NCBI RefSeq assembly: GCF_000379965.1
Contig: NZ_KB904327.1
Coordinates: forward strand, 372,001 to 436,000
Direction of reading: 5' to 3'
Source: Hoylesella nanceiensis DSM 19126 = JCM 15639
GTDB taxonomy: Bacteria > Bacteroidota > Bacteroidia > Bacteroidales > Bacteroidaceae
DNA length: 64,000 bases
Below the pieces are notes generated by a model. The model was not told the origin of the DNA. It saw nothing but the letters and a program-made list of their open reading frames with translations, and did not search any database. Every line of letters starts with the position of its first letter. Position 1 is the first letter of the stretch. Shown here piece after piece: positions 2,689-61,043 of the stretch. A program made the position numbers and the translations under genes.

Positions 2689-2800
2689 AAAATCAATGCT
2701 TTTACGACATAAGAGTAATGCTATTAAGATGCAAAAGCAATGTTATTATACTGTAAAAACAAAGCTTTTATGAAGCTATAAAAATACAATACAAAAGCCT
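2689..2800. repeat. 22-bp phased A-tract repeat array, copy 1
   Basis: Units of exactly 22 bp begin at 2689, 2711, 2733 and 2755, with a degraded unit after 2777. Each starts with an A-tract followed by a variant of AAAAGCAATGCTNTTA and a variable 6-base tail. The units are imperfect (for example AAGAGTAATGCTATTA and AAAAGCAATGTTATTA), so this is a degenerate tandem repeat and not a CRISPR. The same unit with the same period recurs in four other gaps of this window. The gap 2575-2978 holds nothing else except the GNAT promoter and a stem-loop near nadE. Function is unknown. Confidence 0.7.
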
Positions 2801-16993: not shown

Positions 16994-17083
16994 AAAACAG
17001 AATGCTTTTACTCTTCAAAAGCAATGCTATTACCTTACAAAAGGAATCTTATAACAAGATAAAAGACATGTTTTTCTACTCAT
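16994..17083. repeat. 22-bp phased A-tract repeat array, copy 2
   Basis: A-tracts begin at 16994, 17017, 17039 and 17061 (spacings 23, 22, 22). The best unit is AAAAGCAATGCTATTA at 17017, identical to the consensus seen elsewhere. Other units are diverged (AAAACAGAATGCTTTTA, AAAAGGAATCTTATAA). It lies between two divergent genes, in the middle of the long gap. Function is unknown. Confidence 0.65.
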
Positions 17084-27755: not shown

Positions 27756-27821
27756 AATAACAATGTAATTATATGGTAAAAGTAATGCTCTTGCAAGACA
27801 AAAGCACTGAGTTTATTTTGC
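27756..27821. repeat. 22-bp phased repeat array, copy 3
   Basis: Units start at 27756 (AATAACAATGTAATTA), 27778 (AAAAGTAATGCTCTTG) and 27800 (AAAAGCACTGAGTTTA), exactly 22 bp apart. They lie between the feoAB terminator and the convergent phosphopantetheinyl transferase gene. The rest of the gap up to 28030 is AT-rich with nothing I can name. Confidence 0.55.
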
Positions 27822-31069: not shown

Positions 31070-31142
31070 AGCGGAAAACGAGACTCGAACTCGCGACCCC
31101 AACCTTGGCAAGGTTGTGCTCTACCAACTGAGCTATTTCCGC
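31070..31142 (-). tRNA. tRNA-Gly (anticodon GCC)
   Basis: Cloverleaf on the minus strand: acceptor GCGGAAA pairs with TTTCCGC in the usual wobble-tolerant way, D-arm AGCTCAGTTGGTAGAGC, anticodon stem AACCT with loop TTGCCAA, T-arm with GTTCGAGTC. The discriminator is T, as expected for glycine. No CCA is encoded. It is identical to the copy at 31406-31478. Confidence 0.95.
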
Positions 31143-31170
31143 AGATAACAATTTAAAAATAATGTGATAG

Positions 31171-31254
31171 TGAAGAGGAGGAGACTCGAACTCCCACGAA
31201 GCAATTTTCACTACCCCCTCAAAGTAGCGCGTCTACCAATTCCGCCACCTCTCC
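31171..31254 (-). tRNA. tRNA-Leu (anticodon GAG)
   Basis: 84 bases on the minus strand with a long variable arm, as for leucine. Acceptor GGAGAGG pairs with CCTCTTC, D-arm GCGGAATTGGTAGACGCGC, anticodon stem CTACT/GGTAG with loop TTGAGGG, T-loop TTCGAGT, discriminator A. No CCA is encoded. It reads CUU/CUC codons. Confidence 0.93.
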
Positions 31255-31405
31255 ATTCTTTATTGATGCGATTGAAACAAGTCTTTAGAACAAAAGTTAA
31301 ACATAAAAGTCTTATGAAATATGTTTTTGAAATCTATGTATTTACTCATTCTTTAGCTCTAGCATCAATATCTTCACAATAAAAAATATTTTCTACATGA
31401 TAAAG

Positions 31406-31478
31406 AGCGGAAAACGAGACTCGAACTCGCGACCCCAACCTTGGCAAGGTTGTGCTCTACCAACTGAGCTATTTCCGC
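31406..31478 (-). tRNA. tRNA-Gly (anticodon GCC), second copy
   Basis: Same 73 bases as the copy at 31070-31142. It is the promoter-proximal member of the Gly-Leu-Gly cluster; a full Bacteroidetes promoter lies about 40 bases upstream. Confidence 0.95.
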
Positions 31479-39787: not shown

Positions 39788-39875
39788 AAAAGCCATCATT
39801 TTACACAACAAAAGCAGTGGGATTAGATGATAAAAGTATTAAGTTTGCATGCTAATAGCACTTTAATTACAATTT
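39788..39875. repeat. 22-bp phased A-tract repeat array, copy 4
   Basis: A-tracts start at 39788, 39810, 39832 and 39854, exactly 22 bp apart (AAAAGCCATCATTTTA, AAAAGCAGTGGGATTA, AAAAGTATTAAGTTTG, AATAGCACTTTAATTA). The units are more diverged than in copies 1 and 2 but keep the phase. The gap 39595-40049 otherwise has a C/T-rich segment (about 39630-39770) and the TrmH gene promoter; nothing else is seen. Confidence 0.6.
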
Positions 39876-52523: not shown

Positions 52524-52686
52524 AAAACATTTGCATTAATATCACTTTTAACAATACATAATAACCTATTGATATTCAATAAAATGCAACTCTTAAATAA
52601 AAGCTATGATTTTGCATGATAATTACATTACTTTTGTAGGTTAAAAGGATAGCAATTAGCACGAAAAAGCTATGCAATTAAAATCA
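52524..52686. repeat. 22-bp phased repeat array, copy 5
   Basis: Diverged units start at about 52524, then at 52599, 52621, 52643 and 52665 (22-bp steps), with a disturbed stretch between 52546 and 52598. Best units: AAAACATTTGCATTAATA, AAAAGCTATGATTTTG, AAAAGGATAGCAATTA, AAAAGCTATGCAATTA. A TACTTTTG resembling a promoter -7 box lies inside (52629-52636), but its upstream TTTG is only 14 bp away. The rest of the gap 52687-52984 is AT-rich with a C/T-rich segment near 52715-52760 and no gene. Confidence 0.5.
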
Positions 52687-60402: not shown

Positions 60403-61043
60403 TAAATGTTCAAGTGTTTACTTGTAATATGTTACAAGAGAATTGTTTCATTATTAGCGATGAAACAAAAGAATGTGCAATTATAGATTGTGGCGCTTTT
60501 TATCAAGAAGAGCGTGATATGATTTTTGATTATATCAAAAAGAATCAATTAAAACCCAAACATTTGCTTGCTACTCATGGTCATCTTGATCACAACTTTG
60601 GCAATAGTTACATGCAAAAAGAATTTGGACTCACTCCCAAAGTACACCATAAAGACAAGTTCTTAATGGAAAGTATAAAGCAACAAGCACAGCTATTACT
60701 GGGTTTAGATTTAACAGAAGAGCAACCAAAAGATATTGATTATCTAACAAAAGATGATATCATTGAATTTGGTAATCAGCGTTTTACAATAATAGAAACA
60801 CCAGGTCACACTCCAGGAAGTGTATTCTTCTATAATGAAAAAGAGCATATTGCTTTCTCAGGAGATACTATTTTCAAGCGTTCTATCGGTAGAACAGACC
60901 TAGAAGGAGGATCGATGTTTCAGATGATACAAACACTTAGATTTGTATCTCAACTTCCTGATAAAACAATTCTATATCCCGGACATGGTGAAAGCACAAC
61001 TATTGGAGACGAATTAAGTAGCAATCCATACATAGATCGATAG
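60399..61043 (+). CDS. MBL-fold hydrolase, glyoxalase II-like
   Basis: A 214-residue cytosolic hydrolase. Motifs: CAIIDCGAF, LLATHGHLDHNFGN (HxHxDH), IIETPGHTPGSVFFY, IAFSGDTIFKRSIGRTDLEGG and YPGHGESTTIGDE. It belongs to the YcbL-like glyoxalase II-related group, with all metal ligands kept. The substrate is probably a thioester of small size but is not certain. It overlaps rsmG by four bases and ends 19 bp before ruvC. Confidence 0.92.
   Translation: MINVQVFTCNMLQENCFIISDETKECAIIDCGAFYQEERDMIFDYIKKNQLKPKHLLATHGHLDHNFGNSYMQKEFGLTPKVHHKDKFLMESIKQQAQLLLGLDLTEEQPKDIDYLTKDDIIEFGNQRFTIIETPGHTPGSVFFYNEKEHIAFSGDTIFKRSIGRTDLEGGSMFQMIQTLRFVSQLPDKTILYPGHGESTTIGDELSSNPYIDR

What the first reader, a model, noticed from the sequence alone, without database searches (positions are those of the whole stretch)
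2689..2800. A dispersed intergenic repeat with exact 22-bp A-tract phasing
Four units begin at 2689, 2711, 2733 and 2755, all variants of AAAAGCAATGCTNTTA. The same unit with the same 22-bp step is found in four other gaps (near 16994, 27756, 39788 and 52524) and not in genes that I could see. Sequence varies but the period does not, which suggests selection on spacing, not on exact sequence. Two helical turns are about 21 bp, so A-tracts every 22 bp should lie on nearly the same face of the helix, giving curved DNA. Possible roles: nucleoid-protein binding, boundary or transcription-insulating element, or a mobile-element remnant.
Basis: partly seen in the sequence, partly recalled or inferred. 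Interest (0 to 1): 0.72.

Follow-up and report, generated by a model that had tools for sequence, protein, structure and literature searches.

The report
Four-site phased DNA-binding repeat arrays
A Prevotella-type bacterium carries, by estimate, hundreds of short intergenic DNA elements, each typically four near-palindromes exactly two helical turns apart, which look like landing platforms for an unidentified DNA-wrapping protein and whose layout, but not their letters, recurs in related species.

Summary
Confirmed and sharpened. The unit is a 15-bp near-palindrome (AAWAGCAWTGCTWTT) plus a 7-bp spacer at exactly 22 bp. In 464 kb, unit distances were 22 (170), 44 (108), 66 (48), 88 (2); of 65 arrays none had a fifth unit by motif score. 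Density is 3.83/kb between genes, 0.12/kb in genes. About 270 arrays genome-wide (estimate). A motif-free intergenic scan finds 183 four-unit arrays at period 22, 13 at ten other periods together; related species show the layout with other letters. Against a relative at about 91% identity, arrays in intact neighbourhoods are kept 13 of 13 and 10 of 10; core letters change 9%, spacers 36%. Arms do not co-vary: not a hairpin. Arrays avoid each other: 0 of 74 gaps under 2 kb, 17.6% expected. Best reading: a platform for four dimers of a DNA-wrapping protein. Lrp/AsnC is the leading but weak candidate: its recognition helix does not follow the letters and known Lrp spacers are longer. Main rival: relics of MITE-like elements (P. 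histicola copies have conserved ends). A recombination-site idea failed its control.

The parts
2689..2769 (.). Array 1: four 15-bp units at 2689, 2711, 2733, 2755 (22-bp step)
   Evidence: unit scores 20, 12, 19, 17; flanking places -47 and -14
16995..17075 (.). Array 2: four units at 16995, 17017, 17039, 17061
   Evidence: scores 14, 22, 4, 6
27756..27814 (.). Array 3: three units at 27756, 27778, 27800; fourth place degenerate
   Evidence: scores 12, 13, 15, -36
39788..39868 (.). Array 4: four units at 39788, 39810, 39832, 39854
   Evidence: scores 9, 12, 6, 6
52599..52679 (.).
   Evidence: scores 17, 11, 12, 15

Best explanation
Each element is a nucleoprotein platform: four near-palindromic 15-bp sites (6-bp arm, 3-bp centre, 6-bp arm), two helical turns apart, so that four dimers of one DNA-binding protein sit on one face of the helix and the roughly 88 bp can be bent or wrapped. 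Shown: exact phasing, four units as the mode, intergenic placement, stronger conservation of the sites than of the spacers, independence of the arms (not a hairpin), retention at orthologous places, mutual avoidance of arrays. Inferred: the binder is a complex of four dimers, of the kind seen in Lrp/AsnC (feast/famine) octamers, and the roughly 270 complexes organise the chromosome or insulate transcription units rather than regulate one regulon. The protein itself is not identified.
For: 22/44/66 distances with a cut-off at 88; fifth-unit score >=5 in 0 of 65 arrays (G000) and at 2 of 96 end places (G438); half-site strength flat across the four units (84 full arrays). Orthologous retention 13/13 and 10/10, largely the same pairs; substitution 9.1% core, 19.4% other unit columns, 36.5% spacer, 15.8% flank in 10 pairs. 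Arms vary independently or even inversely. AA/TT continues in the same 22-bp phase in the flanks. 0 of 74 gaps under 2 kb against 17.6% in length-stratified permutation. Lrp-type proteins form octamers of four dimers (PMC8707732, passages), bind clusters of 15-bp semipalindromes and wrap DNA (PMC10201364, PMC2995911, PMC3584215, passages). G000 has one Lrp/AsnC protein, similar in sequence to AsnC and PH1519/FL11.
Against: Recognition region AAIHQR is the same in 15 of 19 intact-length Lrp proteins read (types A and B); the other 4 (type C, SPSPxFERQ) are in G012, G045, P. histicola and S. baroniae only. P. conceptionensis, with AAIHQR types alone, has other array letters than G000, so Lrp does not explain the change of letters. 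The BarR operators have spacers of 15-17 or 27-29 bp, not 7 as here. Arrays lie within 1.5 kb of an lrp gene at 5 of 12 lrp loci of array-bearing genomes, 2.8-2.9 expected, P 0.13-0.14; the G438 one is weak and without it P is about 0.3. 17 of 33 P. conceptionensis arrays have 5 to 9 units, and by a looser rule 8 of 61 G000 and 7 of 45 G438 arrays have 5. Spacing is avoidance, not regularity: variation of gaps is below chance in G000 (0.47 against 0.79) but not in G438 or pooled (P 0.55, 0.31). No expression or binding data.
Confidence: 0.45

Rival explanations
1. Relics of a family of small non-autonomous mobile elements (MITE or REP-like) whose internal 22-bp repeats bind a transposase; arrays are spaced because of target immunity, and old copies persist by descent.
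For: In P. histicola one family (TACAAG units) has similar copies with conserved ends ATTACAGAAAAT ... ATTTTCTGTAAT, and another (AAAAGG units) also has similar flanks. BrickBuilt of P. gingivalis is a MITE with 23-nt tandem repeats (PMC4596501, passages). Copy number of the G000 letters differs hugely between species. In P. conceptionensis arrays of the AAACGC family were never closer than 8.0 kb, while the two families lie 0.67-1.03 kb apart in three cases (no control computed).
Against: G000 and G438 arrays have no conserved ends, only phased AA/TT, and spacers change four times as fast as core letters; no gain or loss in 13 and 10 intact neighbourhoods although 30 of 148 tested gene adjacencies were scored as broken. 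Two TACAAG arrays lie 1.5 kb apart (L198), against immunity within that family.
Confidence: 0.3
2. Intrinsically curved DNA with phased A-tracts is the functional feature, with no sequence-specific binder.
For: Predicted curvature 1.093 against 1.066 (array-free intergenic) and 1.040 (5 bp inserted).
Against: The C and G beside the centre (1.58 bits each) are as conserved as the outer A and T positions (1.42-1.65 bits); other species keep 22 bp with few A-tracts.
Confidence: 0.08
3. RNA or DNA hairpins (terminators, attenuators, REP stem-loops).
For: Each unit is a near-palindrome; most arrays lie between co-directional or convergent genes (57 of 65).
Against: Arms identical in 16.8% of 423 units against 26.6% when shuffled; noncanonical arms are anticorrelated (odds ratio 0.44, P 1.4e-4): no compensation.
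Confidence: 0.04
4. Sites of chromosome rearrangement or site-specific recombination.
For: All five window arrays lie at synteny breaks against G438.
Against: Broken with array 13 of 26, but the length-stratified permutation expects 12.5 (P 0.49): long intergenic regions explain it.
Confidence: 0.04

Closest known systems
Lrp/AsnC-family operator clusters (BarR, FL11, Sa-Lrp)
   Same: 15-bp near-palindromes, several in a row; octamer of four dimers; DNA wrapping (passages of PMC10201364, PMC2995911, PMC3584215, PMC8707732)
   Different: BarR spacers are 15-17 or 27-29 bp, here 7 bp; those are regulator control regions, here by estimate about 270 copies, beside unrelated genes in the window. 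The binder is unproven and the Lrp helix does not follow the changing letters.
BrickBuilt MITE of Porphyromonas gingivalis (PMC4596501)
   Same: Intergenic, dispersed, short tandem repeats in Bacteroidales
   Different: 23-nt repeats, 1 to 22.8 copies with expansion and contraction, leader/tail with inverted ends, 19 copies (passages); here 22 bp, four units as the mode, no conserved ends in G000/G438
REP/BIME elements (PMC3733652)
   Same: Many extragenic palindromic repeats per genome
   Different: REPs are 20-40 bp palindromes, most with GTAG or CGTC tags (abstract start and passages); these units show no arm compensation, the consensus holds neither tag, and spacing is rigid

Membership tests
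Lrp/AsnC operator cluster | Several 15-bp semi-palindromic sites in a row | tested here: met
Lrp/AsnC operator cluster | Spacing as in described octamer operators | tested here: inconclusive
   PMC10201364 speaks of two helical turns but gives spacers of 15-17 and 27-29 bp; here 7 bp
Lrp/AsnC operator cluster | An Lrp/AsnC protein is encoded in the genome | tested here: met
   10 of 10 genomes, also those poor in arrays, so weak evidence
Lrp/AsnC operator cluster | Recognition helix changes along with the letters | tested here: not met
   AAIHQR in 15 of 19 proteins read; the 4 type-C proteins do not track the array letters
Lrp/AsnC operator cluster | Protein binds the array | not testable with these tools
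   needs EMSA or ChIP
MITE (BrickBuilt-like) | Conserved (inverted) ends around the repeats | tested here: not met
   for G000 and G438; seen in P. histicola families
MITE (BrickBuilt-like) | Variable repeat number, presence/absence between relatives | tested here: inconclusive
   presence kept 13/13 and 10/10; number mostly four in G000/G438 but 12 of 61 and 10 of 45 have 3 or 5 by the looser rule, and it varies in P. conceptionensis
REP/BIME | Stem-loop with compensatory arms | tested here: not met
REP/BIME | RAYT (Y1) transposase in the genome | not tested
   no search made

The most novel reading that the evidence does not exclude
Prevotella-type bacteria carry a nucleosome-like marking system: a protein complex of four dimers wraps about 88 bp at some 270 fixed, mutually avoiding intergenic platforms, and between species the recognised letters have been replaced throughout the genome while the four-by-22 layout stayed.
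Probability: 0.22. Interest if true: 0.9.

Novelty: new variant of a known kind. Interest (0 to 1): 0.72.

Why it matters
If the arrays are binding platforms they would be a sequence-specific, genome-wide architectural system in a major group of human-associated bacteria, with a fixed geometry that makes the binder easy to fish out. They also offer a natural experiment on how a DNA-binding specificity can change at many sites while the architecture stays. If they are mobile relics, they show a small element kept by selection at old sites.

Tried and rejected
Recombination-site idea: all five window arrays sit at synteny breaks with G438, but the excess vanishes once intergenic length is controlled. 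Alternation of two array families every ~8 kb in P. conceptionensis looked perfect (14 of 14 gaps) but came from centring stretches on one family; a contiguous 155 kb shows no alternation. In one search the array at 160905, labelled T by my counting rule, is in fact an AAAAGGGC-type array. Array beside the lrp gene: 5 of 12 loci, not significant. The sixth 'array' at 60990 has one good unit and was dropped. One two-unit cluster 154 bp from a full array (L038:741) fails the three-unit rule used; counting it would give one gap under 2 kb. Rfam gave only three tRNAs in the window. Paper searches in the held open-access library found no description of such arrays; papers outside that library were not searched.

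Sampling: the 20 G000 stretches were partly placed near listed hits; with the window they hold 228 of 945 pattern hits in 17.5% of the genome, so 65 arrays extrapolate to about 270, not 371. P. conceptionensis stretches were mostly placed on TACAAG hits. Gene calls are simple ORFs of at least 100 aa. At least two of the 183 places (L103) are counted twice, because L103 overlaps L199 and L200. In one search, six Lrp loci were not read by my rule; all six were recovered (two of them already), and a 62-aa fragment (L248) was left out.

Full report
OBSERVATION. The repeats are real. Four units start at 2689, 2711, 2733 and 2755; further arrays start at 16995, 27756, 39788 and 52599. The window lies in genome G000 (2.65 Mb, 12 contigs). 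Genome-wide the 16-mer pattern has 473 + 472 matches against 13 for the reversed control.

ANATOMY. A profile from 464 kb (window plus 20 stretches of 20 kb) gives a symmetric unit AAWAGCAWTGCTWTT with a spacer RCANTGY (607 sites, both strands). Distances between units are 22 (170), 44 (108), 66 (48), 88 (2), with 1 at 21 and none at 23. Of 65 arrays with at least three good units, 50 have four and 15 have three, and none has a fifth by motif score; in 670 kb of the relative G438, 48 arrays, 34 with four, and 2 of 96 end places score as a fifth. A looser consensus rule gives 4 units in 49 of 61 (G000) and 35 of 45 (G438), with 8 and 7 arrays of five and 4 and 3 arrays of three. Intergenic density at score 12 is 3.83/kb, in ORFs 0.12/kb; Markov-simulated intergenic DNA gives 2 to 6 sites against 230.

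NOT A HAIRPIN. In 423 units from G000 and G438 (orthologues included) the two arms are the same in 16.8%, less than after shuffling (26.6%, sd 1.6), and when one arm is noncanonical the other tends to be canonical (odds ratio 0.44, P 1.4e-4). That is how dimer half-sites behave, not stem pairs. The choice of units by score may add a little to this trend.

SELECTION. G438 (unnamed handle) matches the window at 87-94% in shuffled blocks; over all matched blocks identity is 82-99%, mean 90.9%. In intact neighbourhoods 13 of 13 G000 arrays have a G438 array with at least three good units, and 10 of 10 the other way; these largely are the same pairs. In 10 aligned pairs substitutions are 29/320 in core columns, 54/278 in other unit columns, 115/315 in spacers and 309/1955 in flanks, which include coding DNA. 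Deeper, at 65-75% DNA identity, a good array sits at the orthologous place of the NAD synthase array in G012 (score 51), and weak ones in G076 (25; NAD synthase) and G046 (18; moxR): 3 of 8 site-genome comparisons by my reading, of which only the G012 one passes the motif-free scan.

GENERALITY. A motif-free scanner for four palindromic units in intergenic DNA gives, at period 22, 61 (G000), 45 (G438), 33 (P. conceptionensis), 17 (P. histicola), 1 (Segatella baroniae), 14 (eight further genus genomes sampled) and 12 (80 named loci): 183 in all, at least two of them counted twice, against 13 for ten other periods from 17 to 27. Tandem Repeats Finder agrees: period 22 is 24 of 67 intergenic repeats with score 60 or more in 100 other loci. 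The letters differ: AAAAGCTATGCTTTT (G012, G076, G039), TACAAGNNNCTTGTA (P. conceptionensis, P. histicola), AAAAGRYGCCCTTTT (P. histicola), TACCAANNNTTGGTA (S. baroniae). In 398 genus genomes most have 0 to 6 copies of the G000 letters, and S. baroniae gave one array in 120 kb, so arrays are not abundant everywhere. In P. conceptionensis 17 of 33 arrays have more than four units: 'four' is the mode, not a law.

PLACEMENT. The ten genes flanking the window's five arrays are unrelated (for example NAD synthase, a MoxR-type ATPase, FeoB-like, carbohydrate phosphorylase, RecJ-like). Arrays lie between co-directional (42), convergent (15) and divergent (8) genes, mostly in long intergenic regions. 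They avoid each other: 0 of 74 gaps under 2 kb, where permutations stratified by region length give 17.6% (0 of 2000 as low), and 3 of 74 under 3 kb against 30% (G438 alone P 0.0135 for 2 kb). The two genomes share ancestry, so these are not independent. This is avoidance rather than even spacing: gap variation is below chance in G000 alone, not in G438 or pooled. Smaller tests: P. conceptionensis P 0.12 (2 kb) and 0.009 (3 kb), P. histicola P 0.38 and 0.125.

MECHANISM. A 6-3-6 layout of 15 bp, four in a row on one face of the helix, asks for a complex of four dimers. Lrp/AsnC proteins are the known kind: octamers of four dimers, clusters of 15-bp semipalindromes and DNA wrapping. G000 has one Lrp/AsnC protein (L237:1282-1779), related to AsnC (2cg4) and PH1519/FL11 (1ri7, 2e1c). 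Against it: BarR spacers are 15-17 or 27-29 bp, not 7; the recognition region AAIHQR is the same in 15 of 19 Prevotella Lrp proteins read and the four type-C proteins do not follow the letters; lrp-array neighbourhood is not above chance. While checking this report I lowered the platform reading from 0.5 to 0.45, Lrp as the binder from about 0.3 to about 0.2, and the most novel reading from 0.25 to 0.22, because of the BarR spacers.

RIVAL. In P. histicola copies of one family share ends ATTACAGAAAAT ... ATTTTCTGTAAT and another family has similar flanks, so at least some of these arrays travel inside small elements. In G000 and G438 no such ends are seen; only AA/TT in the same phase continues outward. 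Conserved units with fast-changing spacers argue that the G000 arrays are maintained for a function, whatever their origin.

REJECTED LEADS. Rearrangement sites and the alternating-family pattern did not survive controls; see Tried and rejected.

Noticed in passing
window 1-60000 versus G438: Gene order is heavily shuffled between two genomes that match at 87-94% in DNA here: seven breaks in 60 kb, one of them next to the tRNA cluster 31070-31478.
   Followed up: partly
L050:15782-20000: This block is 99.3% identical to G438 while the other matched blocks are 82-94.5%, and its edge lies at the end of an array (15698): possible recent exchange.
   Followed up: no
L195-L214 and L269-L274 (P. conceptionensis, G600): A second family, AAACGCAGTGCGTTT with spacers such as tggtgct, forms longer arrays, never closer to each other than 8.0 kb in the sample; intergenic lags 16, 24 and 32 are also raised in this genome, and one AAAAGGGC-type array is present.
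   Followed up: partly
L215-L222, L249-L268 (P. histicola, G602): At least two array families with conserved or similar ends, plus rare further 22-bp families such as AACACCATTGGTGCT.
   Followed up: partly
L237, L238, L235, L229 (Lrp loci): G000, G438 and G039 (rich in AAAAGC-type arrays; G039 is 81% complete) show only a type-B Lrp and G076 only type A, while all six other genomes searched have two or more intact-length Lrp genes.
   Followed up: partly
L062, L074, L075 (G104): G104 has raised motif counts (77 per strand against 24 control) but no array passed the four-unit motif-free scan in 60 kb.
   Followed up: no
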